From Pyropia yezoensis (Eukaryota; Rhodophyta; Bangiophyceae; Bangiales; Bangiaceae), in the NCBI GenBank assembly GCA_009829735.1, contig CM020619.1, positions 31,207,751 to 31,271,750 on the forward strand: a stretch of 64,000 nucleotides of DNA. The letters are read 5' to 3'. How positions within the stretch are numbered: position 1 is the stretch's first letter; every line of letters starts with the position of its first letter. The position numbers and the translations under genes were made by a program. The notes under the pieces were generated by a model. That model did no database searches, had not been told where the DNA came from, and was given only the letters and a program-made list of their open reading frames with translations. Shown here piece by piece: positions 6,622 through 60,185 of the stretch.

Positions 6622-6983
6622 TGTAGCACAATAGGTATCCGCTGCACGTCCACTCTCAGGGAACACTCACCAAGGAGGATCGGCACCAACGTCACCGGGA
6701 GGCCAAGGTTGCTGTCCTTGGAGCGCAAGCCACGGGACCAAGATGGGAGCCCAAATGGGAGGGGTTTGTTGTTCTACCTTGGCCGGCGGTGGATTCGCTG
6801 CCGGCCCCCTCGTTATAATCCCTCGGAGACACTACTAACTACCCTCCACCCCAAGATGCAAGTCCCTCTGGTCATACGTAACTTATAGATACCGTGACCA
6901 GTACGGACTCCCAAATTGAAAGTTAAGGGTTTGAAGTAGCCCCCTAATATTAGGATCACAATACGGCCAACGATATTGCTACA
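6622..6983 (-). repeat. 3' LTR of A1
   Basis: 362 bp, TG...CA, matching the LTRs at 16968, 20563, 30584, 44548 and 53163. It contains the CCAAGG...CCTTGG and GGCCGGCGG...CCGGCC inverted repeats and a TATAAT/TTATAA element at 6813-6819. Confidence 0.95.
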
Positions 6984-6996
6984 TATCCCCCCCTTA
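6984..6996 (-). promoter_or_regulatory. Polypurine tract of A1
   Basis: On the minus strand this reads TAAGGGGGGGATA directly before the LTR start TGTAGC, as expected of the primer for plus-strand DNA synthesis in LTR elements. The same tract sits at 20926-20938 (A2) and 63757-63769 (A4). Confidence 0.85.
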
Positions 6997-7571
6997 GATT
7001 CGGCCCGTCCTCGGGTCGAGTTGCATTCGGGTTTCCGAATGTAAGTGGGTCGCGTGACCGTTTACCAGTCGGGTGGGGCTTTGCGCCCTGTCGCGACAGA
7101 CACCCCTTTTCGAGGTTGTCTGAGGGGGGTGCCCCCCTTTGTGTGGTACACACACGATCCGTTTTCCGGACCGTTGAATTCCCGATGCGGGTTTCTGTTC
7201 ACGGCCCCCCTTTCCGAGGGGTGGTGCAAGTGGATCCGCCACCAGGCATCTGGTGGTAGGGGGGCCCCTCTCGCGGGACGATTGAGTGGGTGGCGGGGGC
7301 TGCCCGCGTTGCGTGGGGGCGGTTGGTGGTGACCCCCCTTGATTACCCCGTGTGGGGGGGGCGTGGCCCCGATCCAGGTGCCTGGGTGGAGCGCCCTCGT
7401 AGCTCGTCTGGCGCGGGTCGTCCCGCGCTGCCGTATCGCTCGTGCTGAGCTGTGTGGTTATAAGCGCGGGTGCCCGCGCTTCCCTGGCTCGTCCGCGCGA
7501 GCGTTCCTTGTACCGGGTCGAGCCGGCTGCGGCTTTTTGGCACGGGGCGCCCCTGCTACCCCGGCTCCACC

Positions 7572-9938
7572 ATGTCGGACCCCCAGGTACCCGAAGGCGA
7601 GGACGACCTCCTGCTTGAGGAGGAGGAGGAGGTGATGCAAGACGACGTTCCCGTCTCTGCCACCGCTGCCGAGTGCTTCTTCGCGAGCTCGTCGGAGGAC
7701 GAAGGCGACCGGGTGACCGTCCGTGTGGCCCCGGAAGGCGCGCCGGGCGGATTGTCGTCCGTGTGCAGCGGCACGACGGCTCCGTCGGGTGGCGGTCAAC
7801 CGCATGTAGCGGCTGCCCCTACTCCTACTCGTCCGGCGACCCGGATGGCTCCTGCCGCCTGTGCCGGCGCGGCTCTACCTCAAGACGGCACAGCCGGTGT
7901 GTCGGGCGGTCGTGGCGGCACCGCGGCCGGGACGGCGGGTCAAGACGGCGCGGGTGCCCGCCCGGTTGGTGGCGTGCCCGGGGGGGCGGGTAACGGGTCT
8001 GCCCCCTCCGTTCCCATGGTGCCCACGTCGGGCCCGGGTGGCGGCGATGCTCTGCCCGCGGTGCCGCGGGCGATTGGTGGTCAAGACGTGTATTCCCCGA
8101 TGGCGGTGGACTCCGGGGGCTACTCCGGGCGGGCGCCCGCCCTTCTTCTTCCTCCTCGGCCCCGTGCGCCTACGGCATCGGCCCATCTGCCGGTGGTGCG
8201 TCCCCCGGCGCCCCCGATTCTTCCTGGTCCTGCCCGGGTTGCCCCGTTGGGTGGCGGCGTCGCCTTGGCGGCGGGTCAACCCGCCATGTCGATGTCTGAC
8301 TTGGTGGCTCGGGTTCGAGGCCTAACTGTGCAGGAGTCTTTGGACTCCGCTGGGCGGATGCGGGTGGACTTCCACAAGCCGCGTCACCGTGGAGAGTCCT
8401 CCCAGCGCGTCAAGGTGGACCTGAGTTGGGAGCGGAAGTTGGTGCGGCTGGTCAACCAGCCGAACGCGGTTCGGGTGGAGCATCATTGGGTCCTGAGTCA
8501 GCCGGACGACCGGCATGCGCAGCTCTGGCGCACCCGGGTGGGGCGCGGGGAAGTCTTCCTGGACTCCGCCTTTGGGGTATGCGACTTGGTTGCCCCCGCG
8601 TTGCCGCGGGAGGTTGACTACCCGGCTAGTGCTCGGGGGATTGCGGCGGCGGCGGAGCCGGTGGCGTTTGGGGAGACGGTGGGCGATACCGGCTGGTATC
8701 CCGGGTTTGAGTACTTCCCGGGGGTATCCCCGTATCTGACGTTGACGGCTCCGTACCCGCCTATGGCGGGGTTGAAGTCGGCGTCTAGCTTGCGACGCAA
8801 CCATGGTGTCATGGCGGATGCGTTCCGCACCGATATAACGTGTGCGTTGCAGACCGGTATCGGTCGCGCGCCGGTGTACACTCCCGTGCGCCGGCCTCAG
8901 TGGCAGGAGGGGTGGGAACCCGCCCCTGCTTTCCGGTTTGACACCGGCTCCTGTCTCCGATACTTATATGTTGGCGTCTCGGCCGGTCCACCCGTTGCAG
9001 GGGACCTTCACCCTTGAGGTTACCCCCGGGCAGGCCTCCTCCTTCTTGCTGTCCGTCCGCTGGCAGGGGCGCCTGTTTCATCTTCCGACGGGTGTCCGTC
9101 GGCATATCCGGCAGCTTGGCGTAGACATGATAGCTGCCAAGACCGGGTCGGCCCGAGCGTTCGAGGCCCTGCTGGCCGTTCACGACGCCGTGAACTGGGC
9201 TGGGGTGTTGGCCCTTCCCCCGTACCGGGACCCGCAGGCTGGGGCTGCCCCCTTGCCTCGTCACTCGTTGCGTATCTGGCGTACTCAGCCGAGTGAGCCC
9301 AATTGCCGTGGGTGGGCTTCCACCGAGGCTGTTCCTGACCTGGGTATTCCCATGGTTATCCATGACCCTCTTCAGATCCTCGCCCCGTGGTTCGGTAACC
9401 CGATACCGATGGCGGTTGGCCGTCGTCCCCGAAAGTGGGATTTTGCGGGTGGGGAGCGTAGGGTGTCCCGTCGTCGGGCGGAGCCCGTTGGGTTTACGGT
9501 GGAGCCCCTTCAGTGGGGTCATACCGGGCCTCGTATCAGGCGCCACCGGATCCGGTGGTAGCCGTGTCGGCTCCGGTGGCTCGTCTGGCTGCGCCAGTGT
9601 CACCTCCCGCCCCTGTCATGCGTGACGGGGGTCCCCGTCTATGGTATGAGAGCGTTGACGCCCTCATTGCCCGCGAGATGCGGGAGGGTCTCTCTGTTAG
9701 CTGGGGGGATATCCCCCCAGGTGCTGCGCTGGTTGGGTCCGCGCGTTGCTTCGGTGGCGTGCTGGACCGCCTCCAGACAGCTCTGGAGGACGTGGAGGCT
9801 GGCCACAGCACCCTCGTCCAGCTATGCACCGAGGTAACTCGGGCGATTGACCGTCGCGAGATTGCCGACCGGTGGAGCATGGAGGTGTACGCGTGTACGC
9901 GTGAGTGGCCTCCCTCGGGCAGCGGGTCTACCCACTGA
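7572..9938 (+). pseudogene. Family A ORF3 (convergent third gene), copy A1, broken by frameshifts
   Basis: ATG at 7572 opens a protein starting MSDPQVPEGEDDLL. The first ~250 residues are acidic then Pro/Gly/Ala-rich and probably disordered. They lead to a conserved RAPALLLPPRPR motif and a globular part with WVLSQPDDRHAQ, RLFHLPTGVRRHI and LLAVHDAVNWAGVLALP. A 4-base deletion near 8970 and another indel near 9490 break the frame. The last segment ends at the TGA at 9936-9938. Comparison with A4 gives an undamaged length of about 789 residues. It is coded on the strand opposite to gag-pol, so it would need its own transcript from the 3' LTR side. Related frames occur in families B and C. I recognise no known domain; a structural or accessory role is only a guess. 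Confidence 0.75.
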
Positions 9939-10267
9939 GGAGTGCTATTGTTTGTGAGGGAGAGAGACCCGGTGACCCTTATGGTGGCCGGGTAGTAGTG
10001 TGTATAAACTCATCCCCCGCTGGAGCGTTTGCATGATACCAATGCCTGCCTTTGGAGAGTACCCCGTCTGACTTAGCCGTGGCCTGCCTCGGTTCTTCCT
10101 CGCGCCCCCCAACCCATCCTGGTTGGTTAATACTCATGAAGGTCAACCTTCCTTGGTCCGTCACTTGCCCCATGGATGACGGTTTACATCGGTGTAAGCC
10201 TCAGGTTACTTTGAAATTATCGGAGTTAGTCATCTCCTTCAAGTAAACTTGTAAAAGTCAGTAGCTT

Positions 10268-10316
10268 ACTTAGTTTGCCTAAGTCCGCTCCAACTTGGTG
10301 AACCTAAGTCGTGCCG
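10268..10316. repeat. Degenerate hairpin units between pol and ORF3 of A1
   Basis: Two decayed copies of the 24-base unit that forms five copies in A2 and four in A4 (ACTTAGTTTGCCTAAGTC and ACTTGGTGAACCTAAGTC). They lie in the gap between the convergent 3' ends of ORF3 and pol. Confidence 0.6.
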
Positions 10317-10335
10317 AATCCATGTGACACCCTAC

Positions 10336-13300
10336 TTAGTAGGTATAAGCCTCACCCCCCAACAGCCGAAGTCGGTGTCGGTTGGGTTGTTTCAGTAGGC
10401 GTCGTCGCCTCATGTAAGGCATGAGAAGTTGGCGGGGTATATTCGCCGCCTGTTCCCAGGTGGGTGAGTCGTATCCGACCCACATAACCTTGACGTACCA
10501 GGGTCCTGGTAGGTCCGGGTCGGTGTGTCCGACCACGCTCTCTACTTGGTATGGAATCCCATCCGGCCCCACCGGGTCATCTGACCGGTGGGTTGTAAGA
10601 GCTTCATGTAGCAACCCAGCCGGTACCGGCTGAGGCTGTTCCGGCTTCGGAGCAGGTGTCACATCATTGAGATTGATGCGTTGTATCTCCGTATCGGAGT
10701 GCAGGATGACAGAGTGATCATCTCTGTGTAAGATCTGATACGGTCCCTTGACCGGTTGCATGAGCTTATTGCCCCGGAACTTCTGGTGTCTGATGTAGAC
10801 CCAGTCACCTGTTACCAGGGTTGCGTCGCGCACCCGTAGTCGGGCGTCGAAGTTCTTCTTATATCGAAGTTGTGTTCTGTCAAGGGCACCCTTGAGCTTA
10901 GGAATCATCCACGATAGCTTGGCCAACCAAGCTAGGCGGATGCGTTCGGCCGGTCGGCCTTTCGGTGTATCATACCGAGTGCACCTGCCTGGCGGCAGCG
11001 TCAGGTTACCGACGCCTAAGGGCATGACCCACTCCAGTGGGGCGATGTTTGTGCTCCGATGTGGCCTGGCATTGTATGCCAGGGTGAGTACGGACAGAAG
11101 CCTGTCCCAAGTGTTTGTGTGCTCGGCCACGTAGCACTGTAGCATCTTGACGATGGTGCGGTTGAACCGCTCCACCTGCCCGTTGGATTGTGGGTGGTAA
11201 TCGGATGCCCGACGGGGTTCGATACCGAACATGCCCAGGACATTACTGCAGAATGCTGACGTCAGGTTTGCTCCGTTATCGGAGAGGAGTTGCTTCATGA
11301 CTCCGTCAGCACTGATCCAGTGGTCAACCACTGCGTTCATGATCGTGTAGGCCGTATCGTTCGGGATTGCTACTGCCCGTGACAGCTTAGTAAATCGGTC
11401 CGACATGACCAGGATGTACCTGTTCCCTTCTTCCGTTACCGGAAGCGGCCCGAGTATGTCGATAGCGACTTGCTCGTTGGGTCCATCCGGGGGGAACAGT
11501 TTCATAGCGGATGCCCGCCTATGAAGACTCATACGATTCCGTGCACACGGGTGGCATCCCCGCACGTGGTCGATTACGTCAACGGCCATTGCTGGCCAGT
11601 AGAAGAGCCTTCGCATTGCTGCGAACATGCGAGAGCCCCCCGGGTGTCCGGCTGTGGGGTTCTCGTGTTCTCGTTCCATGACGGCTTGTCGTAGGGACAC
11701 GGTAACTACGACTTGATGCCGTCCATCGGCGGGTGCCCGCCGGTATATGAGTCCGTCCTCGTTTTCGGAAAAGATGCCGGCCGTGCCGGCTAGGAGGTTA
11801 GCACGATGGCGTTTACAGTCATCGTCATTGGCCTGTGCCTCGCGGAAGTCCGCGAGGGTCAATGGGCTCGCAAGGTGTGCCATGGTATGGTCAACCATAC
11901 CTTGGGTAGCATTACCCACCATGCAAACCGGTACAACCGGGATGTCCTCGTCCACCTGTAGGGTATCCCCGCTCGGTGTATCGAGTCGCGACAGCGCGTC
12001 TCCCAGATGATGGGTAGAGCCGGCCTTATATATGGTCCGGTAGTCGTGCTCGGCCATCTTCAGCCTCCACCGGGCTAGCCGACCGTGGCTGTCGGAATCT
12101 TTGTAACCAAGGTTGAGAAGCCATCGTAAAGGTTCGTTGTCGGACCTCACGATGAACCTGGAACCTTCCAGGTATGGCCGGAGCAGTTGCACTGCCCACA
12201 TGACTCCGAGGCACTCGCGCTCGGTGGCACTATAGTTACGCTCAGCCGGGTTGAGTGTCCGGCTGAAGTACCCTACCGGATGTAGGTCCGGGATAGCATG
12301 ATAGGTACCGATGATGGTCTCTCCCTGTAACAGGGTGCATCCCACTTGGATATCGCAGGCATCGACGTCGATGACGAAGGTCCCGCGTCTATGCGGCAAC
12401 GCAAGCACGGGTGGGGCTAGCAGAGCTTGCTTGAGCAGCTCTTATGCCTCTCCCTCGGTAAGCGAGGGAGGTAGGAGTACCTTTGGCAAGGCGCTGCTCG
12501 TCAGAACCGTTAACGGTTTGGCTATACGAGCGAAGAACTTGACGAACCGTCGGTATACGTTGCACATCCCCAGGAAGCTTTTCAGCTGTGTCTGGGTGGT
12601 TGGGTATCGCGCATCCCGGAGTGCCCGGGTATTAGCTTCGAGCACTCCAAGTTTACCTGGTGTGATCTGGTGACCCAGATACTCGACGGTCTGCTGAAAG
12701 AACACGCACTTCTTGAGGCGCAGGGTTACCCCGGCGTTCCGCAAGAGGGTGAGTACCTCGTCGACATGCTGCACATGGTCATCCATGTTACGCGAGAATA
12801 CGATGACATCGTCCAAGTACACTATGCAGTTACACCACTTGACTCCCGACAGTATAATGTCGATGGCCCGCTGGAATGTGGCGGGGGCGTTGGATATTCC
12901 GAAGGGCATCCTTAGGAACTCGTACACGCCACTGTGACAGACGAACGCTGTCTTGGGGATATCCTCCTCTGCCACTGGCATCTGCCAGTAGCCGGCATTG
13001 CAGTCGATAGTGGTAAACACTGTGGCCTCCGGCAGCGAGTCGATGCGCTCGTCCATCCTTGGTAAAGGGTATGAGTCTTTCTTGGTAACCAAGTTGAGGC
13101 GTCGATAATCGATGCAAAACCGAGGGATTTGATCCTTCTTCGGTACGATCACGACTGGGGCGCCCCACTCCGACATCGAAGGTCGGATCACCTTAGCTTC
13201 GCTCATCCTCTTCACTTCTCCATCAACGATCTCTCGTTGCATTGGTCCCGCGCGATGCGGTTGCGACCGCGCTGGTCGAGCACCTGGTACCAGGTGTATA

Positions 13301-14481
13301 CGGTGTTGGGTTGCCCCAATGGTACCCAGTGCCCCGCCGGTCCACATGACGTCATGCTTTCTTAGCATCCGTCGTACCCCTTCAGCTACCGAAGGGGGAA
13401 GGTGGTCGAGGTCAGCCTCGGCCAGAGCCTTCAAGGCTTCTTGGTCCTTTGGCGGAGTGTCCGCCGGAGCTGTGAATGGGTTAGGCTTCCCGTCATCGGG
13501 TTGCTGCCGCTCGGTGGTCTCGGCGACCGCCAGTACCTCAAGTGGTTCCACTTGCTCTTCCTTGTCAGTGGTAAGGATGTCTCCTTCGTAGAGCTCGGCA
13601 ATCTCGAGGATAGTTCCTTTCGGAATGGTGCGTGCCTTACGGCGATAGTTCGCCATCACGAGCAGTGATGACCCCCCCGCTGGGAGGTCTACGATACCGT
13701 TGGACTTGGTCAACGCATGGCGCTTGTAGGTTCGCAGGTTGGACTGGACTCTGCAGATGCCTGCGAGGTCACAGTTAACCGGGAGGACGGTCTCCGATAA
13801 CGGCTCAAAGCGAGTCCGCTTGGCCAGCCGGAGTGTCTTTGGTTCTACGCTGGCGTATACCTCAGCCACGTTAAAGTGGCTCCCTTGTAGCGTCAGGTCC
13901 CTGACGGTAGCTGTCTGTCCTCTCTTCGTCCCGTCGGCCTCTTGCAGCTCGACGGTCCTCCGGCCCGGACGGATTGCACCAACGTGAACGTTGATGAAAG
14001 TGCACCCCAGTATGCAGGGCACAGATAGAGTCTCACACACCAGGAAGTCAACTTCCGTAGTGAGCTCCCCGATGGTGACCCGCAGCGACATCGCTGCGGT
14101 CGTACGAATGAGACGACCATTCGCATCCTTGATCGTGGGTCTCCGAGCAAATCTGACTCGCGGGAGCCACTTGTCCGGGAGGGTATCCTTCCGGATCCGG
14201 ATATGTCCAGCCCCTGTATCCAGTACAGGGTACTACGATCGGTTCGACTGGGGGTCAACCCCCAGTGTGGCTGATACCTTGAAGTTCTCCAAGGTGAACA
14301 GTACGTGGCCTACACCGATATCCGGTGTAGCTCGGGCATCCTGAACAGGACCCTTGTCTGGTTCCATGTGACGGGGCTTCCCGTCCTCTCCTCCCAACCT
14401 TAGTGGTTGGTCATCAATCCCCTGACGCCGTGTCGTCGGGGCCGGAAGGTGTACCCGGGGGTTGATGCGGCGTCGGCTCAA
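10336..14481 (-). pseudogene. pol: pol of A1 (protease, RT, RNase H, integrase, chromodomain), broken
   Basis: The frame is homologous throughout to the intact A2 pol. An indel cluster around 14190-14230 shifts the frame at the protease motif DTGAG. A TAA at 12442-12444 interrupts the RT-RNase H connection; the same frame then resumes to the stop at 10336. RT (YLDD), RNase H (FVIDVDACD), the integrase HHCC finger and catalytic Asp and Glu residues, and a C-terminal chromodomain (WYVKVMWVGYDSPTWE) are all recognisable. In the family this polyprotein copies the RNA and inserts the cDNA. The chromodomain usually steers insertion to marked chromatin. This copy reads 16 residues past the stop used in A2, ending RHRLRLLGGEAYTY. 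Confidence 0.9.
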
Positions 14482-14564
14482 CCGCGCTCTCCGTGGGGCT
14501 TTCCCCGCGGCAGTCCGGGGTGGCTTGCTAGGGTTACCCCAGCGACCCCGTGTCGTCCTTCCTC

Positions 14565-16742
14565 TTACTCGCTTCCCGTACTTGGCCCGGTACTATCTTC
14601 CGGGATATCCGGGAGAGGAGGTGCCTCCTCGACTGCCAGTACTCCTCCTGGAGCTTGCTGCCTACCCGGTGCCGGGCCTCTGGCGGAATACCCCCCAATG
14701 GATGCCTTGCGATGCGCCGCTGCCCTTCGAGACTCCTCTGGGATGAGCGCGCATGCGGACACCCAGTGTTGGAGGTCTCCGCAAAGCATGCATCCGGACG
14801 TGCCGGCCGTCCCGGGCGTCCGCGTCGGGTTGGCTGCATAGGTCTGGTTGCCTGCCTCGTGCGCCCGAGTGCCTGCCCCTAGGTAGGCCTTGGGTCCCGG
14901 TGCCAACCGGAACATGGACTCCCCCAGCCGGTTGGTTCTACCCGCGATGTGCGGAGGTGCCTCCGTACGCACTGCCCATGTCAGCAGGGGTTGGTGGGGG
15001 CTACCCGTAACCGGGGCATACCCCGTAGTCCGCACATACGGGACGCGCCGTCCCGCTCCCTCGTTGACCTGGAACTGGGTCCCAGCCGGAGCGATGTACG
15101 CTACCGTACCATGCTCATCGATCACTGGCGTCGCCGGTAGCAACAGGTGGCCCTGTTGGTCGACTAGAGGTTCATCCTCACCCGTAGGGGTATGTTCGGT
15201 CGCCACCAGTACTGGTGCGGCCGTACGCTCCACCTTCTCTTGCCTCGTTACCGGGATAAGATTGGGCTTGCCTCCCTCACCCTTGGGCTTCGGGGCCAAG
15301 GCACATTCCGGGTGTAGCACCCGGTAGGCGTCCCCTAGGGACTTGCACATGTGCATCAGTTGACTGAAGTTCGTCCGAGCCGTATTGGCTCCCCGTGCGG
15401 ATATCCGCACGTAGTTGGGTACTCCTGCGAGCAAGATGGCCCGTAGTTCCCCTTCGACGAGGAGCTTCCCCAGCTCGTAGTCGAGCTCTTGGATCCGGCG
15501 TCCAAACATCTCCTCATCCTCCCAAGACTGGGCGGTGCCGGTGCGAAGGGCCCGATAGTGGTCTTCGCACTTGTCCTCACTGAGGTAGCTGCTAAGCAGC
15601 TCCTTCAGTATACCACGGTAATCCATGGGGGTGGCTGCGACCCTCATTCCCGGCATCGGGGATGCCTGGAGGAGGATGCCTCGGACCCGTTCGTCTACAG
15701 AGAACGGGAGGATCTCCAGTGCCAGCCCCTCGTTGACAAGTGCCTTGTCCGCGGCCGCCTTCAAGCTAGTCAAGAAGCCAATGACTGCCAACGGGCGTCC
15801 GTTCGGGTCCCCGAACATAGGGGCTCCCTTCATAAGGGTCTGCATAGAACGGATCGCTCGGTGCGAGGTCGTACGCATCGATTCCGATACGGTAGTGGAT
15901 CGGTCCTCCAAACGATAACGTTCAGGAGTCAGTACCGACCTGAAGACTTCGTTGACAATCTCCGTGTTCGCGCCCTGGATGTCCAGTCGCTTGGCTAATT
16001 GATGAGTAAACGTGTCGAACTCCATCCGCTTCAGTAAGCTCGCAGTAACCTGCGCTGTCATCGCTTGCAACAATGACGCTGAGACTTTAGGCGTCGGCGC
16101 CTCGGGTACCCGAGTTGCCTGGCTTCCGTCGTCGAGGGGTTAATGGGAGACGGTACCGTCTCCCCCCATCGCCGACTCTGTTCCGGCGTAAGTGTCCGCC
16201 GGACCCTGTCCGCGGAGCCCGCTCTGGGTACTCCGAGCGTAGCGCTCCGTATGGCTACGTTCTAACTCGGCTGACGAGTCGGATCCATTACCCGCCGTGT
16301 CCAGGGGTTGTCCAGGAGTAGCAACACCGGGGTCGACCCTGGTGGACTCCGAAAGTAGTCCGGCCGATTCGAACCGTACCGGTGTGGGAGGAACACGACG
16401 GGGTACCGTCGCATGGCGTGCTGACATCAGCACAGCCATTGCGTCCTCCGTACGTTCTTGACGGGCGTCGAGCCCGGTGAACCGGGCCTCGATGCGAGCC
16501 AATGATGCCATCAGGGAGTCCCCTGGTGAAGGTGGCGGCGGCGTGAGGTCGGCAGAGGACAGTTGGGGCGGTCTGCCGCCCCCGGCCGTCCGAGCCCTAC
16601 CAAACGTCGATCCGGCACCTGAGAGCATCGGCGTCTCAATGTTGTCGATCGGGATACCGATCCCGGTTCCCGGGTTCAGCTCCGGGGTCGGCGTCGACGC
16701 CGATCCGTCATCTTGAAAGTTCCCCGTCTCTTGGGTAGACAT
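14565..16742 (-). pseudogene. gag: gag of A1, one premature stop
   Basis: ATG at 16742 (MSTQETGN...). The reading frame is interrupted once, by TAA at 16140-16142, then continues in the same frame to 14565. A Pro/Gly/Thr-rich N-terminal region leads to a helical capsid-like part (MTAQVTASLLKRMEF... to ...RGANTARTNFSQLMHM). Near the C-terminus is a CCHC zinc knuckle, CMLCGDLQHWVSAC. Gag packages the element RNA into the particle. Family length is about 727 residues. Pol follows in the -1 frame. Confidence 0.88.
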
Positions 16743-16949
16743 AGTCACAATCAGTCAACCGACGTAACACTCACCACGAATAAGAGAGCGAGGGGGTAGT
16801 TGGGGGAAAGTAACCGTAGATCGCAGTCAAACGCAACCACTCAAAACAATCAAACAGATCGCAGCACCACGAGTACAAGAAAAGGACTGGATCCCTATCC
16901 GTAGGCCAGGGCCGAAGACGGCGTCACCACAAGGGTGACGTAAACCCGT

Positions 16950-16966
16950 CCCCTGCTGCTCCACCA
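16950..16966 (-). promoter_or_regulatory. Candidate primer-binding site of A1
   Basis: One base after the 5' LTR the minus strand reads TGGTGGAGCAGCAGGGG; the other family A copies read TGGAGGAGCAGCAGGGG. It begins with TGG, the complement of a tRNA CCA end, and sits where minus-strand synthesis is primed. I cannot name the tRNA; it is not the usual initiator-Met site. Confidence 0.6.
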
Positions 16967-16967
16967 A

Positions 16968-17331
16968 TGTAGCACAATAGGGTATCCGCTCCACGTCCAC
17001 TCTCAGGGAACACTTGCCAGGGGGGATCGGCACCAACGTCACCGGGAGGCCATGGTTGCTGTCCTTGGAGCGCAAGCCACGGGACCAAGATGGGAGCCCA
17101 AATGGGAGGGGTTTGTTGTTCTACCTTGGCCGGCGGTGGATTCGCCGCCGGCCCCCTCGTTATAAACCCTCGGAGACACTACTAACTACCCTCCACCCCA
17201 AGATGCAAGTCCCTCTGGTCACACGTAACTTATAGATACCGTGACCAGTACGGACTCCCAAATTGAGAGTTAAGGGTTAGAAGTAGCTCCCCTAATAGTA
17301 GGGTTACAATACGGCCAACCATATTGCTACA
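16968..17331 (-). repeat. 5' LTR of A1
   Basis: 364 bp, TGTAGCA...TGCTACA, the partner of 6622-6983. Confidence 0.95.
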
Positions 17332-20562: not shown

Positions 20563-20925
20563 TGTAGCACAATAGAAATCCGTCGCACGTCCACTCTCAG
20601 GGAACACTCACCAAGGGGGATCGGCACCAACGTCACCGGGAGGCCAAGGTTGCTGTCCTTGGAGCGCAAGCCACGGGACCAAGATGGGAGCCCAAATGGG
20701 AGGGGTTTGTTGTTCTACCTTGGCCGGCGGTGGATTCGCCACCGGCCCCCTCGTTATAAACCCTCGGAGACACTACTAACTACCCTCCACCCCAAGATGC
20801 AAGTCCCTCTGGTCATACGTAACTTATAGATACCGTGACCAGCTCGGACTCTCAAATTGAAAGTTAAGGATTAGAAGTAGCCCCCCTAATATTAGGGTCA
20901 CAATACGGACAACCATATTGCTACA
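20563..20925 (-). repeat. 3' LTR of A2
   Basis: 363 bp with TGTAGCA...TGCTACA ends. Followed by the PPT complement at 20926-20938. Confidence 0.95.
20755..20760 (+). promoter_or_regulatory. Candidate TATA box in the LTR facing ORF3
   Basis: TATAAA on the plus strand within a TTATAA palindrome. Read on the plus strand it points towards ORF3 (start 21510); the palindromic core can also serve the gag-pol direction from the other LTR. It is conserved in the other LTR copies. Confidence 0.4.
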
Positions 20926-20938
20926 TATCCCCCCCTTA
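20926..20938 (-). promoter_or_regulatory. Polypurine tract of A2
   Basis: Minus strand TAAGGGGGGGATA abutting the LTR. Confidence 0.85.
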
Positions 20939-21509
20939 GATTCGGCCCGTCCTCGGGTCGAGTTGCATTCGGGTTACCGAATGTAAGTGGGTCGCGTGAC
21001 TGTTTACCCGTCGGGTGGGGCTTTGCGCCCCGTCGCGACAGACACCCCTTTTCGAGGTTGTCCGAGGGGGGTGCCCCCCTTTGTGTGGTACACACACGAT
21101 CCGTTTTCCGGACCGTTAATTTCCCGATGCGGGTTTTTGTTCACGACCCCCCTTTCCGAGGGGTGGTGCAAGCGGATCCGCCACCAGGTGCCTGGTGGTA
21201 GGGGGTCCCTCTCGTGTGGACGATTGAGTGGGGGGCGGGGGCTGCCCGCGTTGCGTGGGGGCGGTTGGGGGTGACCCCCCTTGCTTACCCCGTGTGTGGG
21301 GGTGGCCCCGTCCCGCCCAGGTGCCTGGGTGGGGCGCGTTCGTAGCCCCGTGCGGCGTGGGTCGACCCGCGTGTTTGTGGCGCTGCTCGTGGCCGTTTGT
21401 GGTCATAAGCGCGGGTGCCTGCGCTTCCCTGGCTCGTCTCGGTTATCCCACCGTACCGGGTCGTAGCCGTCGACGGCTTGTGGGCGCGGGGGACTCTGCA
21501 CCCGTTATC

Positions 21510-23497
21510 ATGTCCTATTCCCAGGTGCTTGGAGAGGAGGAAGACCTCCTGATCGGGGAGGAGATGGAGGACGACGCGCCTGTCGGTCCCGACGCCGCGC
21601 GTTACGGGGTGAGCTCGTCTGACGACGACGGGCCTGCGGTGTCCGTCCGTCTGTCGGCCGGAGGACTGTCGTCCGTGTGCAGCGGCACGACGGTGCCGTC
21701 GGCCGGAGGTCAACCCGGCGGTCAACCGCGCGTGGCGGCTTCTACCCCCTCTCTGCCGGCTGCCCGGATGGAGCCTGGTGCCGGTGCCGGCTCACCGCAG
21801 CTACCTCAAGATGGTCCGCCCTGCGGCGGAGGTGGCGACCCGCAGCCGACTCCGGCTGGTCAAGGTGGTCCGGGTGTCCGGGCGGTGACTCCTCGAGGCG
21901 GTCCCGACGTTGACGCGGGTGGTGGTGGCGGTGCGACACCCGGTGCGGCGGGTCAAGACGGTGCGGGTGTCCGCACGGCCGGGGCTCCGGCTCCGGAGGC
22001 TGTCCAAGTGCCTTCCACTTCCGAGGCGGGGGCTACGCCGACGGGTGGTGCCGGCGCCGGTACCGTACCTGCGGTGCCGCGGGTGTCGAGCGGTCAAGAC
22101 GCTCCTTCTCCCATGGCGGTTGACACCGGGAGTTACTCCGGGCGGGCGCCCGCCCTTCTTCTTCCTCCTCGGCCTCGTCCATCTTCGACGTCGGCCCCTC
22201 TGCCGGTGGTGCGTCCCCCGGCGCCCCCGATTCTTCCTGGTCCTGCCCGGGTTGCCCCGTTGGGTGGCGGCGTCGCCGTGGCGGCGGGTCAACCCGCCAT
22301 GTCGATGTCCGACCTGGTGGCTCGGGTTCGAGGCCTAACTGTGCAGGAGTCCATGGACTCCGCTGGGCGGATGCGTTCCGCACCGATATAACGTGTGCGT
22401 TGCAGACCGGCAACGGTCGTGCGCCGGTATACACTCCCGTGCGCCCGCCTCTGTGGCAGGAGGGGTGGGAACCCGCCCCTGCTTTCCGGTTTGACACCGG
22501 CTCCTGTCTCCGCTACTTCAAGAGTGTGTTGGCCTCCCGTCCGGTCCACCCGTTGCAGGGTACCTTCACCCTTGAGGTTACCCTCGGGCAGGCTTCATCC
22601 TTCTTGCTGTCCGTCTGCCGGCAGGGTCGTCTGTTTCATCTTCCGACGGGTGTCCGTCGGCACATCGCGCAGTTGGGCGTGGATCTGATAGCCGCCAAGA
22701 CCGGGTTGGCCCGGGAGTTCGAAGCCCTGCTGGCTGTTCACGATGCCGTGAACTGGGCTGGGGTGTTGGCCCTTCCCCCGTACCGGGACCCGCAGGCTGG
22801 GGCTGCCCCCTTGCCTCGTCACTCGTTGCGTGTCCGGCGTACTCAGCCGGGTGAGCCCAGTTGCCATGGGTGGGCATCCACCGAGGCTGTTGCTGACCTG
22901 GGTATTCCCATGGTCATCCATGACCCTCTTCAGGTCCTTGCTCCGTGGTTCGGTAACCCGATGCCGGCGGCGGTTGGCCGTCGTCCCCGAGAGTGGGGTT
23001 CTGTGGGTGGGGAGCGTGAGGTGTCCCGTCGTCGGGCGGAGTACCGCCGTGGTTACGGTGGGGCCCCTTCGGTAGGGTCCTACCGGGCCTCGTATCAGGT
23101 GCCACCGGCTCCGGTGGTAGCCGTGTCGGCTCCTGTGGCTCCTCTGGCTGCGCCAGTGTCACCTCCCGCCCCTGTCCTACATGACGGGGGTCCCCGTCTC
23201 TGGTATGAGGGCGTTGACGCCCTTGTTACCCGCGCAATGCGTGGGGGTCTCTCTGTTAGCTGGGGGGATATCCCCCCAGGTGCTGCTCTGGTTGGGTCAG
23301 CGCGTTGCTTCGGTGGCGTGCTGGACCGCCTCCAGAAAGCTCCGGAGGACGTGGAGGCTGGCCGCAGCACCCTCGTCCAGCTATGCACCGAGGTAACTCG
23401 GGTGGTCGACCGTCGTGACGTTGCCGACCGGTGGAGCACGGAGGTCTACGCGCTTACGCGTGAGTGGCCTCCCTCGGGCAGTGGGTCTACCCACTGA
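21510..23497 (+). pseudogene. Family A ORF3, copy A2, internal deletion
   Basis: ATG at 21510 (MSYSQVLGEEEDLL). Open to 22391, where it shifts frame. Compared with A1, about 460 bases are missing between two copies of GGCGGATGCG (A1 positions 8353-8362 and 8813-8822), joining GRMR to the segment that normally starts AFRTDITC. The rest is open from 22400 to the stop at 23495-23497. The N-terminal low-complexity part differs a lot from A1 and A4, while RAPALLLPPRPR, the HLPTGVRRHI block and the C-terminal block (GDIPPGAALVGSARCFGGVL) are kept. Unknown function. Confidence 0.72.
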
Positions 23498-23808
23498 GGA
23501 GTGCTATTGTTTGTGCGGGAGAGGGCCCCGGCAACCCTTATGGTAGCCGGGTAGTAGTGAGTATAAACTCATCCCCTTTGGGGGCATTGCTTGCCTCTGT
23601 TTGCTGCCCTGGGGAGTACCCCTTCTGGCTCAGTGGTGCCTTGCCTCCCGTCCAACTTCTTCCGGTAGGTTCGTGCTTGGGGAGGTCATCCTCCCTCACT
23701 TGGTGTCTTGGCTTGGGGAGGTCATCCTCCCGTGTAAGCTCCCTAGTTACTTCGATATTATCGGAGTTAGCCTTTACCTTTAAGTTAACTTATTAAGGTT
23801 CAGGTTTT

Positions 23809-23928
23809 ACTTAGTTACCTAAGCTTAGCTCTACTTAGTTACCTAAGCTTGGTTCGACTTAGAAGCCTAAGTCTGATTTGACTTAGAAACCTAAGTCTGA
23901 CTTGACTTAGAAACCTAAGTCTGCCGTA
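23809..23928. repeat. Five tandem 24-bp hairpin units between ORF3 and pol of A2
   Basis: Units start at 23809, 23833, 23857, 23881 and 23905. Each is a near palindrome, for example ACTTAGAAACCTAAGT. The array sits in the 500-base gap where ORF3 (plus) and pol (minus) converge. A4 has four units (60186-60281) and A1 two decayed ones, so copy number varies. Possible roles are transcript ending for both strands or a structural RNA element. Confidence 0.85.
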
Positions 23929-23999
23929 ACCATGTCACACCCTACTTAGTAGGTATGAGCCTCACCCCCCAACAGCCGAAGTCGGTGTCGGTTGGGTTG

Positions 24000-26900
24000 T
24001 TACAGTAGGCGTCGTCGCCTCATGTACGGCATGAGGAGTTGGCGGGGTATATTTGCCGCCTGTTCCCAGGTGGGTGAGTCGTATCCGACCCACATAACCT
24101 TGACGTACCAGGGTCCTGGTAGGTCCGGGTCGGTGTGTCCGACCACGCTCTCTACTTGGTATGGAATCCCATCCGGTCCCACCGGGTCATCTGACCGGTG
24201 GGTTGTAAGAGCTTCATGTAGCAACCCAGCCGGTACCGGCTGAGGCTGTTCCGGCATCGGAGCAGGTGTGACATCATTCATGCTGATGCGTTGAATCTCC
24301 GTATCGGAGTGTAAGATAACAGAGTGGTCATCTCTGTGGAGGATCTGATACGGTCCCTTGACCGGTTGCATGAGCTTATTGCCCCGGAACTTCTGGTGTC
24401 TGATGTAGACCCAGTCACCTGTTACCAGGGTTGCGTTGCGCACCCGTAGTCGGGCGTCGAAGTTCTTCTTATATCGAAGTTGTGTTCTGTCAAGGGCACC
24501 CTTGAGCTTAGGAATCATCCACGATAGCTTGGCCAACCAAGCTAGGTGGATGCGTTCGGCGGGTCGGCCCTTCGGTGTATCATACCGCGTGCACCTGCCG
24601 GGTGGCAGCGTCAAGTTACCGACGCCTAGTGGCATGACCCATTCCAGTGGGGCGATGTTTGTGCTCCGATGTGGCCTGGCATTGTATGCCAGGGTGAGTA
24701 CGGACAGAAGCCTGTCCCAAGTGTTCGTGTGCTCGGCCACGTAGCACTGTAGCATCTTTACGATGGTGCGGTTGAACCGCTCCACCTGCCCGTTGGACTG
24801 CGGGTGGTAGTCGGATGCCCGACGTGGTTCGATACCGAACATGCCCAGGACCTTAGTGCAGAATGCCGACGTAAGGTTTGCTCCGTTATCGGAGAGGAGT
24901 TGCTTCATGACTCCGTATGCACTGATCCAGTGGTCAACCACTGCGTTCATAATCGTGTATGCCGTATCATTCGGGATGGCTGCTGCTCGTGACAGCTTGG
25001 TGAAGCGGTCAGACATGACCAGGATGTACCTGTTCGTTTCTTCCGTTATCGGAAGTGGCCCGAGTATGTCGATAGCGACTTGCTCGTTGGGCCCATCAGG
25101 TGGGAATAGCTTCATGGCAGACGCCCGCCTATGTAGACTCATGCGATTACGTGCACAGGGGTGGCATCCCCTTACGTGGTCGACCACGTCGACGGCCATT
25201 GCTGGCCAGTAGAAGGACCTTCGCATTGCTGCGAACATACGTGAACCCCCCGGGTGTCCGGCTGTAGGGTTCTCATGTTCTCGTTTCATGACGGCTTGCC
25301 GTAAGGACACGGGAACCACGACTTGATGTCGTCCATCGGCGGGTGCCCGCCGGTATATGAGTCCGTCTTCGTTCTCGGAGAAGATGCCGGCCGTACCGGC
25401 CAGGAGGTTAGCACGATGACGCCTACAGTCATCGTCGTTGGCCTGTGCCTCGCGGAAGTCCGCGAGGGTCAATGGGCACGCCAGGTGTGCCATGGTATGG
25501 TCAGCCATACCCTGGGTAGCATTACCCACCATGCACACCGGTACTACCGGGATGTCCTCGTCCACCGGGCGGGTATCCCCGCTCGGGGTGTCGAGTCGAG
25601 ACAATGCGTCTCCGAGGTGGTGGGTTGACCCAGCCTTATACACCGTGCGGTAGTCGTGCTCGGCCATCTTCAGCCTCCATCGGGCTAGCCTCCCATGGCT
25701 ATCGGAATCCTTGTCACCAAGGTTGAGGAGCCATCGTAGGGGTTCGTGGTCGGACCTCACGATGAACCTGGAGCCCTCCAGGTATGGACGGAGCAGTTGC
25801 ACTGCCCATATAACTCCGAGGCATTCACGCTCGGTGGCACTATAGTTCCGCTCAGCCGGGTTGAGTGTCCGGCTGAAGTACCCTACCGGACGTAGGTCCG
25901 GGATAACGTTATCGGAACCGATCAACGTCTCTCCCTGTAACAGGGTGCATCCCACTTGTGTATCACACGCATCGACATCGATGACGAAGGTACCCCGTCT
26001 ATGCGGTAACGCAAGGACGGGTGGGGCTAGTAGGGCTCGCTTCAGCGACTCGAATGCCTCCTCTTCGCTAGGCGAAGGGGGTTGGAGTACCTTGGGTAAG
26101 GTACTGCTCGTAAGAACCGTTAACGGTTTAGCTATCCGAGCGAAGTCCTTGACGAACCGTCGGTATACATTGCACATTCCCAGGAAGCTCTTGAGCTGCG
26201 TCTGGGTGTTATGGAACCGGGCATCCCGGAGTGCCCGGGTATTGGCTTCGAGTACCCCTAGTTTACCAGGGGTTATCTGGTGGCCCAGATACTCGACCGT
26301 CTGTTGGAAGAAGGCGCACTTCTTCAGACGCAGGGTTACCCCGGCGTTCCTCAAGAGGGTGAGTACCTCGTCAACATGTTGTACATGGTCATCCATGTTA
26401 CGCGAGAAGACGATGACGTCATCGAGGTACACTAGGCAGTTACGCCACTTCACCCCCGACAGTATAATGTCGATAGCCCGCTGGAAGGTAGCGGGGGCGT
26501 TGGACAACCCGAAGGGCATCCTTAGGAACTCGTACACGCCACTGTGACAGACGAACGCTGTCTTGGGGATATCCTCGTCCGCCACCGGGATCTGCCAGTA
26601 TCCGGCGTTGCAGTCGATGGTGGTAAACACCGTAGCTTCCCCCAGGGAGTCGATGCATTCATCCATCCTTGGTAAAGGGTATGAGTCCTTCTTGGTAACC
26701 AAGTTGAGGCGTCGATAATCGATGCAAAACCGAGGGGTTTGATCCTTCTTCGGCACAATAACGACTGGGGCACCCCATTCCGACATCGAAGGTCGGATCA
26801 CCTTAGCTTCACTCATCCTCTTCACTTCTCCATCAACGATCTCTCGTTGCATAGGTCCCGCTCGGTGCGGTTGTGAGCGGGCGGGTCGTGCGCCTGGTAC

Positions 26901-28091
26901 CAGGTCTATACGATGTTGGGTTGCCCCAATGGTCCCCAAGGCCCCGCCTGTCCACATAACGTCATGCTTTCTTAGCATCCGTCGTACCCCTTCGGCTACC
27001 GAAGGGGGAAGGTGGTCGAGGTCAGCCTCGGCCAGTGCCTTCAAGGCCTCTTGGTCCTTTGGCGGCAGGTCCGCCGGAGCCGCCGATGGGTTAGGCTTCC
27101 CGTCATCGGGTTGCTGTCGCTCGGTGGTCTCGGCGACCGCCAGTACTTCAAGTGGTTCCACTTGACCTTCCTTATCAGGGGTAAGGATTTCTCCTTCGTA
27201 GAGTTCGGCAATCCCGAGGATAGTTCCCTTCGGGAGGGTGACTGCCTTACGGCGATAGTTCGCCATCACTAAGAGGGACGACCCTCCTGCTGGGAGGTCT
27301 ATGAGACCGTTGGCCATGGTCAACCCATGGCGCTTGTACGTCCGTAGGTTGGACTGGACTCTGCAGATGCCTGCGAGGTCGCAGTTAACCGGGAGGACTG
27401 TCTCTGACAACGGCTCAAAGCGAGTTCGCTTGGCCAATCGAAGTGTCTTCGGCTCGACGCTTGCGTACACCTCAGCCACGTTAACGTGGCTTCCTTGTAG
27501 CGTCAGATCCCTGACGATGGCCGTGTGTCCTCGCTTCGTCCCGTCGGCTTCTTGAAGCTCGACGGTCCTCCAGCCTGGCCGGATTGCATCAACGTGAACG
27601 TTGATGAAGGTGCACCCCAGTATGCAGGGCACCGATAGTGTTTCACATACCAGGAAGTCAACTTCCGTGGTGAGATCCCCGATGGTAACCTGCAGCGACA
27701 TCGCTGCGGTCGTACGAATGAGTCGACCATTCGCGTCCTTGATGGTGGGTCCCCGAGTCACTCTGACTCGTGGAAGCCACTTGCCCGGGAGGGTATCCTT
27801 CCGGATAAGGTTGGGTCCAGCCCCTGTATCCAGTACAGGGTAGTACGATCGTGTCGACTGGGGGTCAACCCCCAGTGTGGCTGATACCTTGAAGTTCTCC
27901 AAGGTGAACAGTACGTGGCCTACACCGATATCCGGGGTAGCTAGGGCATCCTGGACAGGGCCCTTGGCTGTTTCAACGTGAAGGGGCTTCCCGTCCTCAC
28001 CTCCCAACCTTGGTGGTTGGTCATCAATCCCCTGACGCCGTGTCGTCGGGGCCGGAAGGTGTACCCGGGGGTTGATGCGGCGTCGGCTCAA
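24000..28091 (-). CDS. pol: pol of A2 (protease, RT, RNase H, integrase, chromodomain), intact
   Basis: An uninterrupted frame of 1363 codons; the fused product probably begins upstream through a -1 shift from gag. Aspartic protease motif DTGAG is at residue 88. RT has FCIDYRRLN and YLDD (555-558); RNase H begins about 700 (FVIDVDACD). The integrase has an HHCC finger (...HENPTAGHPGG... CHPCARN) and a D-D35-E core (AIDILG, LSDNGAN, GQVERFN), with 35 residues between the second Asp and Glu. The C-terminal ~50 residues are a chromodomain (VVGH...WYVKVMWVGYDSPTWEQAANI). This makes the element a chromovirus. The enzymes process the polyprotein, copy RNA to DNA and integrate it, with the chromodomain likely guiding site choice. 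The coding DNA is packed with short palindromes. Confidence 0.95.
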   Translation of the reverse strand: MSRRRINPRVHLPAPTTRRQGIDDQPPRLGGEDGKPLHVETAKGPVQDALATPDIGVGHVLFTLENFKVSATLGVDPQSTRSYYPVLDTGAGPNLIRKDTLPGKWLPRVRVTRGPTIKDANGRLIRTTAAMSLQVTIGDLTTEVDFLVCETLSVPCILGCTFINVHVDAIRPGWRTVELQEADGTKRGHTAIVRDLTLQGSHVNVAEVYASVEPKTLRLAKRTRFEPLSETVLPVNCDLAGICRVQSNLRTYKRHGLTMANGLIDLPAGGSSLLVMANYRRKAVTLPKGTILGIAELYEGEILTPDKEGQVEPLEVLAVAETTERQQPDDGKPNPSAAPADLPPKDQEALKALAEADLDHLPPSVAEGVRRMLRKHDVMWTGGALGTIGATQHRIDLVPGARPARSQPHRAGPMQREIVDGEVKRMSEAKVIRPSMSEWGAPVVIVPKKDQTPRFCIDYRRLNLVTKKDSYPLPRMDECIDSLGEATVFTTIDCNAGYWQIPVADEDIPKTAFVCHSGVYEFLRMPFGLSNAPATFQRAIDIILSGVKWRNCLVYLDDVIVFSRNMDDHVQHVDEVLTLLRNAGVTLRLKKCAFFQQTVEYLGHQITPGKLGVLEANTRALRDARFHNTQTQLKSFLGMCNVYRRFVKDFARIAKPLTVLTSSTLPKVLQPPSPSEEEAFESLKRALLAPPVLALPHRRGTFVIDVDACDTQVGCTLLQGETLIGSDNVIPDLRPVGYFSRTLNPAERNYSATERECLGVIWAVQLLRPYLEGSRFIVRSDHEPLRWLLNLGDKDSDSHGRLARWRLKMAEHDYRTVYKAGSTHHLGDALSRLDTPSGDTRPVDEDIPVVPVCMVGNATQGMADHTMAHLACPLTLADFREAQANDDDCRRHRANLLAGTAGIFSENEDGLIYRRAPADGRHQVVVPVSLRQAVMKREHENPTAGHPGGSRMFAAMRRSFYWPAMAVDVVDHVRGCHPCARNRMSLHRRASAMKLFPPDGPNEQVAIDILGPLPITEETNRYILVMSDRFTKLSRAAAIPNDTAYTIMNAVVDHWISAYGVMKQLLSDNGANLTSAFCTKVLGMFGIEPRRASDYHPQSNGQVERFNRTIVKMLQCYVAEHTNTWDRLLSVLTLAYNARPHRSTNIAPLEWVMPLGVGNLTLPPGRCTRYDTPKGRPAERIHLAWLAKLSWMIPKLKGALDRTQLRYKKNFDARLRVRNATLVTGDWVYIRHQKFRGNKLMQPVKGPYQILHRDDHSVILHSDTEIQRISMNDVTPAPMPEQPQPVPAGLLHEALTTHRSDDPVGPDGIPYQVESVVGHTDPDLPGPWYVKVMWVGYDSPTWEQAANIPRQLLMPYMRRRRLL

Positions 28092-28174
28092 CCGCGCTCT
28101 CCGTGGGGCTTTCCCCGCGGTACTCCGGGGTGGCTTGCTAGGGTTACCCCAGCGCCCCCCGGTGGTCCTTCCTC

Positions 28175-30357: not shown

Positions 30358-30583
30358 AGTCACAATCAGTCAACCGACGTAACGATCACCACGAATAAGA
30401 GAGCGAGGGGGTAGTTGGGGGAGAGTAACAGTAGATCACAGTCAGAGGTAAAAACTCAACACAATCGATCAGGTCGCAACACCACGAGTACAAGAAAAGG
30501 ACCGGATCCCTATCCGTGTGCCAGGGCCGAAGACGGCGTTCACCACAAGGGTGACGGAAACCCGTCCCCTGCTGCTCCTCCAA

Positions 30584-30943
30584 TGTAGCACAATAGGAAT
30601 CAGTCGCACGTCCACTCTCAGGGAACACTCACCAAGGGGGATCGGCACCAACGTCACCGGGAGGCCAAGGTTGCTGTCCTTGGAGCGCAAGCCACGGGAC
30701 CAAGATGGGAGCCCAAATGGGAGGGGTTTGTTGTTCTACCTTGGCCGGCGGTGGATTCGCCGCCGGCCCCCTCGTTATAAACCCTCGGAGACACTACTAC
30801 TACCCTCCACCCAAGATGCAAGTCCCTCTGGTCATACGTAACTTATAGATAACCGTGACCAGCTCGACTCTCAAATTGAAAGTTAAGGATTAGAAGTAGC
30901 CCCCTGATATTAGGGTCGCAATACGGACAACCATATTGCTAGA
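30584..30943 (-). repeat. 5' LTR of A2
   Basis: 360 bp; the terminal CTACA reads CTAGA here. Several single-base deletions against the other LTR. Followed by target duplication ACGGC at 30944-30948. The PBS lies on its left side (TGGAGGAGCAGCAGGGG on the minus strand, 30566-30582). Confidence 0.93.
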
Positions 30944-37940: not shown

Positions 37941-37968
37941 AACAGCCGAAGTCGGTGTCGTTGGGTTG

Positions 37969-42055: not shown

Positions 42056-42138
42056 CCGCGCTCTCCGTGGGGCTTTCCCCGCGGTACTCCGGGGTGGCTT
42101 GCTAGGGTTACCCCAGCGCCCCCCGGTGGTCCTTCCTC

Positions 42139-44322: not shown

Positions 44323-44547
44323 AGTCACAATCAGTCAACCGACGTAACAATCACCACGAATAAGAGAGCGAGGGGGTAGGTTGGGGAGAGTAACAGTAGA
44401 TCACAGTCAGAGGTAAAAACTCAACACAATCGATCAGGTCGCAACACCACGAGTACAAGAAAAGGACCGGATCCCTATCCGTGTGCCAGGGCCGAAGACG
44501 GCGTCACCACAAGGGTGACGGAAACCCGTCCCCTGCTGCTCCTCCAA

Positions 44548-53525: not shown

Positions 53526-53526
53526 T

Positions 53527-53543
53527 TGGAGGAGCAGCAGGGG
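53527..53543 (+). promoter_or_regulatory. Primer-binding site of A4
   Basis: TGGAGGAGCAGCAGGGG, one base after the LTR end. Shared by A2 and A3. Confidence 0.65.
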
Positions 53544-60163: not shown

Positions 60164-60185
60164 GTAGGGTGTGACATGGCTACAG

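What the first reader, a model, noticed from the sequence alone, without database searches (positions are those of the whole stretch)
12157..16582. Paired (compensatory) substitutions between copies A1 and A2 preserve the palindromes
Five inverted repeats in A1 have changed both arms relative to A2. (1) 16418-16433 GTGCTGA-CA-TCAGCAC against 30033-30048 GTGTTGA-CA-TCAACAC. (2) 12450-12470 CTCCCTCG..CGAGGGAG against about 26060-26080 CCTCTTCG..CGAAGGGG, where one pair is C-G to T-A and another T-A to C-G. (3) 12157-12172 CCTGGAA-CC-TTCCAGG against 25767-25782 CCTGGAG-CC-CTCCAGG. (4) 14771-14780 GGAGGTCTCC against 28386-28395 GGGGATCCCC. (5) 16565-16582 GGGGCGG..CCGCCCC against 30180-30197 GAGGCGGG..CCCGCCTC. 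Cases 1, 2 and 5 also change amino acids, so protein conservation does not explain them. Paired changes are the classic sign of maintained base pairing, or of template-switch correction of quasi-palindromes during DNA synthesis. Counter-examples exist (CCACGTTAACGTGG in A2 reads CCACGTTAAAGTGG in A1), so decay also occurs.
Basis: seen in the sequence. Interest (0 to 1): 0.9.

Follow-up and report, generated by a model that had tools for sequence, protein, structure and literature searches.

The report
Hairpin-studded retrotransposons of red seaweed
Some jumping genes in the nori seaweed genome carry a short self-pairing hairpin roughly every 70 to 90 letters, through their genes as well as outside them, and the young copies seem to keep these hairpins by natural selection, which suggests that the folded shape has a job.

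Summary
The window lies in Pyropia yezoensis (nori; scaffold sizes match). A1 and A2 are Ty3/gypsy LTR elements. The excess of paired changes over controls is small and mostly not significant.

The larger finding is hairpin density: A2 pol has 59 hairpins against 15.0 +- 3.2 after codon-preserving shuffling. They run through gag, pol and the 3' region. The excess is small or absent in host samples and in a second set of Ty3 families. Family A has its own apex: a 4-base loop closed by 5'G-C3' (90 of 124; C-G 11).

On two young, polarised branches, stem sites change at about half the rate of other sites (40/2702 against 333/12253, p 1e-4); loops do not (27/1007). Hairpin losses are reduced (34 against 54.2), births match point mutation (16 against 16.2). 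Older copies show weak or no constraint. Template-switch correction predicts about 16 paired changes; 2 were seen.

Best reading: a selected array of structures, most likely read as RNA, perhaps by Gag.

The parts
6622..17331 (-). Element A1, Ty3/gypsy LTR retrotransposon (LTRs 6622-6983 and 16968-17331)
   Evidence: self-comparison; domains
10336..14091 (-). A1 pol in two open frames: RT (12442-14091), RNase H and integrase (10336-12408)
14565..16748 (-). A1 gag region in two open frames (14565-16073, 16140-16748)
   Evidence: CCHC pattern; no Pfam family over cut-off
14751..14792 (-). CCHC zinc-knuckle pattern of Gag; case 4 (14771-14780) lies inside it
   Evidence: pattern match; coordinates worked out by hand from its frame offset
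16418..16433 (.). Case 1 hairpin: paired change C-G to T-A between subfamilies
12450..12470 (.). Case 2 hairpin: two paired changes, one broken pair in A2
12156..12173 (.). Case 3 hairpin: paired change at the innermost pair (2-base loop)
14771..14780 (.). Case 4: stepwise through G.T (32 of 36 A1-like rows)
16565..16582 (.). Case 5: private to A1; pair unformed in 28 of 35 A1-like rows
20563..30941 (-). Element A2, young copy; hairpin array over gag, pol and 3' region
   Evidence: listed hairpins
24000..28091 (-). A2 pol, one open frame of 1363 aa: 59 hairpins against 15.0 after synonymous shuffling
37941..44910 (-). A3, matching part 99.5% identical to A2
53163..64000 (+). Element A4 (runs off the window end), sister lineage of A2 used to polarise changes
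20563..23960 (-). 3' region of A2 outside gag-pol (LTR included): 44 four-base-loop stems, 36 closed by G-C
49423..53253 (-). Element B, another Ty3 family: hairpin excess (27 against 9.4) without the G-C apex

Best explanation
A group of related Ty3/gypsy families in this genome (A, B, L065, L066) carries short hairpins scattered along the element. In family A there is one hairpin every 70-90 bases: stems of 5-10 perfect pairs, usually a 4-base loop closed by 5'G-C3', through gag, pol and the 3' region. Shown here: the excess, its independence of codon and amino-acid content, its weakness or absence in other sequence sampled, and reduced stem change in two young lineages with loops left free overall. 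Inferred: hairpins arise by ordinary point mutation, are kept by selection while the element is replicating, and decay once a copy is dead in the chromosome. Most likely (inferred) the selected object is the folded genomic RNA, which the element's own zinc-knuckle Gag may compact or package through many dispersed, weak, interchangeable hairpin sites. That would fit selection on density rather than on site, and an apex that differs between families.
For: Excess: A2 pol 59 hairpins against 15.0 +- 3.2 after synonymous shuffles; stems around 4-base loops 65, 73 and 64 against 6.6, 8.3 and 7.2 in A1, A2 and A4 gag-pol. Codon-preserving folding-energy difference: A2 pol 18.5%, A4 pol 15.6%, B 14.8%, L066 13.7%, L065 9.5%; host-like frame -0.6%, L064 2.5%, L068 1.3%. 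Restriction: L065, L066 and B z 6.1, 8.8 and 5.6; L064, L067 and L068 z 1.2, 0.3 and 1.1. Apex G-C 90 of 124, C-G 11 (A1 and A2 pooled, so partly related), against 66:66 in random host stretches. Constraint on the A2 and A4 branches: stem 19/1591 against other 141/6192; third codon positions 10/431 against 77/1590, p 0.022; with the second piece 40/2702 against 333/12253, OR 0.54, p 1e-4; loops 18/639 and 9/368, the overall rate of other sites. Hairpins lost 34 against 54.2, p 0.002. Older copies: singletons at A2 stems 316/825 against 1393/3420 columns, p 0.14. Hairpin sites of A are not shared with L065, L066 or B (3, 0 and 1 against about 3 expected). Gag has a CCHC pattern. L066 structure is sense-biased (z -3.4).
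Against: Strand tests in family A do not favour sense RNA. Changes in stems give G.U 10, A.C 12; sense minus antisense energy is z -0.1 in A2 and +1.8 in A4; near-perfect hairpins of family A have more A.C than G.U mismatches; the apex is its own reverse complement. Spacing is close to random (CV 0.76), not lattice-like. Loops are not constrained overall, so no loop letters are shown to be read; in the 3' region alone loops change little too (3/194 against 141/3692), so there the contrast of stem and loop is not seen. The stem effect is uneven: the A4 branch in the 3' part of pol shows none (6/269 against 20/1163). L063, of the other set, has a moderate excess (z 3.5; 7.9%). Constraint is not cleanly absent in older copies: singletons at the group's own stems are 242 in 701 columns against 1619 in 3899 (p 0.002), and private changes break 198 hairpins against 247 or 232 expected. 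Variants shared by three or more A1-like copies are reduced at the group's own stems (30/701 against 273/3899) but not at A2's stems (50/825 against 228/3420). On the young branches hairpins decline on balance (34 lost, 16 born). No Gag binding was measured.
Confidence: 0.42

Rival explanations
1. Template switching during reverse transcription or DNA repair prints and corrects the hairpins (quasi-palindrome correction); no function is needed.
For: Template switching is a documented source of perfect stems and multiple compensatory changes in RNA genes (PMC8794818, abstract and first part of Results). In the copy L027 births are 7 against 3.4 expected (p 0.04). Some births among private changes have two or more changes in the arms (10 of 63; no expectation computed), and 9 of 70 A2 hairpins differ from the A1-like state at 2-3 pairs.
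Against: Births equal point-mutation expectation on the young branches: 16 against 16.2, and among private changes 63 against 73.1. Private paired changes 2, non-pairing doubles 2, one-sided 234. A correction model predicts about 16 paired changes where 2 are seen (p 1.4e-5). Other Ty3 families in the same genome have little or no excess.
Confidence: 0.12
2. The hairpins are kept at DNA level (cDNA hairpins of either strand, or double-stranded palindromes bound by a dimeric protein such as integrase or a host factor), not as RNA.
For: Family A is strand-symmetric: apex motif self-reverse-complementary, no wobble preference, similar excess folding on both strands. Palindromic DNA is weakly preferred at LTR retrotransposon insertion sites (PMC6911290, passages).
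Against: Stem sequences are nearly all different, so a sequence-reading dimer has little constant beyond G....C. L066 is sense-biased. Loops change freely overall.
Confidence: 0.25
3. Genome-scale RNA structure that shields the transcript from host sensing or small-RNA silencing (as proposed for GORS in RNA viruses), without Gag. Not exclusive of the Gag reading.
For: Folding-energy difference of 9.5-18.5% in A, B, L065 and L066 lies above the 3% used to call GORS in viruses (PMC3950689, passages; methods differ). Hairpin sites of A are not conserved in the other families, as expected if only overall structure matters.
Against: Does not explain the G-C apex peculiar to family A. Hairpins can also feed silencing: in maize, miRNA-like structured regions map a higher diversity of small RNAs (PMC10760457, abstract).
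Confidence: 0.25
4. Compositional or coding artefact: codon usage, amino-acid repeats or base composition create palindromes.
For: A mild preference for centres on codon boundaries in family A.
Against: Survives dinucleotide, codon and synonymous shuffles; present in the 3' region outside gag-pol; absent in a host-like frame of 76% GC (31 against 29.3).
Confidence: 0.03

Closest known systems
[quoted passage not shown]
   Same: Structure spread along the genome, detectable as folding energy beyond codon-preserving shuffles, above the 3% threshold (PMC3950689 passages)
   Different: LTR retrotransposon rather than an RNA virus; many discrete, short, perfect hairpins; in family A equal on both strands and with a shared apex
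Dispersed packaging signals (packaging-signal-mediated assembly)
   Same: Many short stem-loops along a packaged RNA with a partly shared apex; review PMC6281560 (abstract and highlights)
   Different: No binding shown; loops not conserved overall; spacing near random; more than 100 sites
Packaging of Ty1/Ty3 genomic RNA
   Same: Ty3-type element with zinc-knuckle Gag; a review says scattered RNA sites outside the main region may contribute (PMC4974528 passages)
   Different: No hairpin array described there in the passages seen
Template-switch-made RNA hairpins
   Same: Perfect short stems and paired changes (PMC8794818, abstract and first part of Results)
   Different: Births and paired changes on the young branches here do not exceed point mutation

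Membership tests
Ty3/gypsy LTR retrotransposon | RT, RNase H, then integrase in pol | tested here: met
   (A1, A4, B)
Ty3/gypsy LTR retrotransposon | Flanking LTRs | tested here: met
   6622-6983 and 16968-17331, 95.3% identical
Ty3/gypsy LTR retrotransposon | Gag with CCHC knuckle, aspartic protease motif | tested here: inconclusive
   patterns, recalled and not from a call, match (CCHC in A1, A2; D-T-G-A in A4 pol); Pfam matches are below their cut-offs
Ty3/gypsy LTR retrotransposon | Primer binding site | not tested
   -
GORS | Folding-energy difference above 3% against codon-preserving shuffles | tested here: met
   9.5-18.5% in A, B, L065, L066 pol; my shuffle differs from the CDLR method of the paper
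GORS | Extends along the genome | tested here: met
   gag, pol and 3' region of family A
GORS | Genome of a positive-strand RNA virus | tested here: not met
   LTR retrotransposon
GORS | Lower recognition by host RNA sensors | not testable with these tools
   no expression or sensing data
Dispersed packaging signals | Many stem-loops with a shared apex motif | tested here: inconclusive
   G-C closing pair shared, loops vary freely overall
Dispersed packaging signals | Binding by the coat or Gag protein | not testable with these tools
   -
Template-switch hairpins | Births or paired changes beyond point mutation | tested here: not met
   exception L027, births 7 against 3.4

The most novel reading that the evidence does not exclude
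Each family of this retrotransposon group writes its own structural signature, a hairpin type with its own apex, many times across its genes (more than a hundred in family A). It lets the element's proteins tell its own nucleic acid from that of rival families and from decayed copies. In family A the signature is strand-symmetric, so it could be read on RNA and cDNA alike.
Probability: 0.2. Interest if true: 0.9.

Novelty: new variant of a known kind. Interest (0 to 1): 0.7.

Why it matters
Scattered RNA structure along the genome is well known in RNA viruses. I found no report of it as a hairpin array in LTR retrotransposons in nine searches of one open-access full-text library, judged from their listings (subscription journals are mostly missing and preprints are not held). 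With more than a hundred hairpins in the A2 element, three further families whose hairpins do not sit at the same sites as those of A, and old copies as a near-neutral comparison, it is an unusually clean natural experiment on whether structure inside coding sequence is selected, and for what.

Tried and rejected
Template switching: rejected as the main cause, with L027 as an exception (births 7 against 3.4). Composition or codon artefact: rejected. Host-wide mutational process: unlikely; 13 readable random stretches of 14 fetched show 0.5-1.9 times the shuffled number, the highest being L052 with 37 against 20.0 +- 3.1. Sense-RNA wobble test: no support in family A. Regular spacing: no. Shared hairpin sites between families: no for A; L065-L066 5 against 1.9, p 0.04. 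RNA versus DNA by apex asymmetry: GNRA-like loops 10 against 2 in reverse complement among 117 in A2, 6 against 1 among 98 in A1; suggestive only. An early contrast (stems at half the control rate between subfamilies) was set aside because choosing perfect hairpins in one sequence by itself can halve the apparent rate; the polarised tests with hairpins taken from the sister copy replace it. The regression of hairpins on private changes had a positive slope (r 0.53), which I do not use.
Full report
Where this is. The window is contig C2, 31,207,751-31,271,750, of a genome whose three large contigs have 43,592,136, 34,331,705 and 29,385,039 bases. Published Pyropia yezoensis scaffolds are 43.6, 34.3 and 29.4 Mb, with LTR retrotransposons predominant among repeats (PMC7423979, passages seen), so the host is the nori seaweed. 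A1 (6622-17331, minus strand) has two LTRs 95.3% identical. Its frames give RT, then RNase H, H2C2 and integrase core, and a CCHC pattern in Gag: a Ty3/gypsy element. A2, A3 and A4 are copies of the same family; A2 and A3 are 99.5% identical where they match.

The observation. All letters quoted are present. I fetched 40 further stretches of 4.7 kb and laid them on the A1 piece 12100-16700 with A1-A4, giving 44 rows. Of these, 40 are A1-like; A2, A3, A4 and L027 were kept apart; 23 of the 40 are full length. Cases 1, 2 and 3 are real paired differences between subfamilies (4 pairs in 3 hairpins). In case 4 most A1-like rows hold the G.T intermediate. In case 5 most A1-like rows are unpaired and A1 regained a pair by itself. 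Paired changes exceed controls only modestly: 6 of 415 against 104 of 19,668; joint commonest states 3 of 415 and 4 of 351 against 15 of 6000 (p 0.11 and 0.018); over the element 10 of 829 against 5.7 of 852 and 8 of 739 against 5.0 of 724. Within the A1-like group, five pairwise comparisons gave 0 paired changes.

What is really unusual. Perfect hairpins (arms of 6 or more, loop 0-10) are 3.9-7.1 times the shuffled number in the twelve 2-kb bins that lie mainly in gag-pol of A1-A4, and about 2.5 times in the three bins at the gag ends of A1-A3. They exceed codon-preserving shuffles about fourfold in A2 pol (59 against 15.0 +- 3.2) and less in some smaller frames, for example A1 gag 16 against 6.2. 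All three codon phases are used, with some preference for codon boundaries. Loops of 0, 2 and 4 bases make up more than half (54 of 94 in A2 gag-pol), which is one class: a 4-base loop whose inner bases may also match. The closing pair is 5'G-C3' in 90 of 124 and C-G in 11; the loop centre is pyrimidine-purine in 66 of 124 (A1 and A2 pooled). The same apex occurs outside gag-pol (36 of 44 in the A2 3' region). In 13 readable random stretches the closing pairs are 66 G-C and 66 C-G and the hairpin excess is none to 1.9-fold.

Other families. Six other Ty3 elements were sampled as 3-kb stretches, plus B in the window. L065, L066 (44% protein identity to A2 pol) and B (41-42% to those two) have an excess (z 6.1, 8.8, 5.6) but different loops and no G-C apex. 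The set at 31-36% identity to A2 pol, L063, L064, L067 and L068, has z 3.5, 1.2, 0.3 and 1.1. No tree was built. Hairpin sites of A are not at the protein-aligned sites of the others, so sites turn over. Folding energy against codon-preserving shuffles: A2 pol 18.5%, A4 pol 15.6%, B 14.8%, L066 13.7%, L065 9.5%, L063 7.9% (40 shuffles); L064 2.5%, L068 1.3%, host-like frame -0.6% (12 shuffles).

Selection or mutation. I polarised changes on the A2 and A4 branches, with the A1-like group (or A1, in the second piece) as outgroup and hairpins taken from the sister copy, so that choosing perfect hairpins does not bias the branch tested. In the first piece stem sites changed 19 of 1591, other sites 141 of 6192, loop sites 18 of 639. 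At third codon positions it was 10 of 431 against 77 of 1590, p 0.022. In the second piece, the pol 3' part gave 7 of 507 against 51 of 2369 and the 3' region 14 of 604 against 141 of 3692, neither significant alone; one of the four branch-by-part tests there (A4, pol 3' part: 6 of 269 against 20 of 1163) shows no constraint. Together stems are 40 of 2702 against 333 of 12,253, OR 0.54, p 1e-4 (the pieces do not overlap). Loops in the second piece changed 6 of 174 in the pol part and 3 of 194 in the 3' region. Hairpins lost 34 against 54.2 expected, born 16 against 16.2. In older copies the same sites are weakly or not constrained: A1-like singletons 316 in 825 stem columns against 1393 in 3420, and L027 18 of 783 against 61 of 3112, neither significant. 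L027 lost 15 against 12.7 and gained 7 against 3.4 (p 0.04). With the group's own hairpins, singletons are down 17% and variants shared by three or more copies 39%, and private changes break 198 hairpins against 247 or 232 expected; with A2's hairpins shared variants are not reduced (50 of 825 against 228 of 3420). So the case for selection rests on the two young branches, and the older copies are an imperfect neutral comparison. If arm-to-arm correction had removed the missing stem changes, about 16 paired changes should remain; 2 do.

Mechanism. I commit to selection on the folded element, most likely as RNA, with Gag packaging or condensation as the most plausible use; the last step is inference. 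For it: a zinc-knuckle pattern in Gag, hairpins along the element, an apex that differs by family, turnover of sites, sense-biased folding in L066 (z -3.4), and a review that leaves room for scattered packaging sites in Ty elements (PMC4974528 passages). Against it: family A is strand-symmetric, which leaves a DNA-level reader open, and spacing is close to random. A weak sense bias (about -0.3 to -0.4 z in several pieces, -0.01 in A2 gag-pol) was not upheld for A2 and A4 pol with codon-preserving shuffles.

Limits. A2, A3 and A4 share history, so counts on them are not fully independent. Private changes include some that arose before insertion. The hairpin number still falls on the young branches, so the array is constrained, not proven to be in balance.

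Noticed in passing
21228-23497 (+) in A2; 60786-63470 (-) in A4; 7470-9017 (+) in A1: The 3' region carries long open frames antisense to gag-pol. One (22400-23497 against 60786-61994) differs between A2 and A4 mostly at third positions (25 against 7 and 6), as for a real antisense gene; the other shows a weaker third-position excess. No Pfam family over cut-off.
   Followed up: partly
L066 (3 kb, Ty3 family): 31 hairpins against 7.7 after synonymous shuffles, mostly loops of 0-3 bases and arms of exactly 6, and folding biased to the sense strand (13.7% against 5.0%), unlike family A.
   Followed up: partly
23817-23913 and 23688-23724 in A2: Tandem-like repeats of one hairpin unit (24 and 36 bases apart) just after pol.
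   Followed up: no
A1 10336-14091: A1 pol is open in two frames while A2 and A4 pol are each one long frame.
   Followed up: no
28366-28407 in A2, 14751-14792 in A1: Case 4 of the finding falls inside the Gag zinc-knuckle codons (coordinates worked out by hand).
   Followed up: partly
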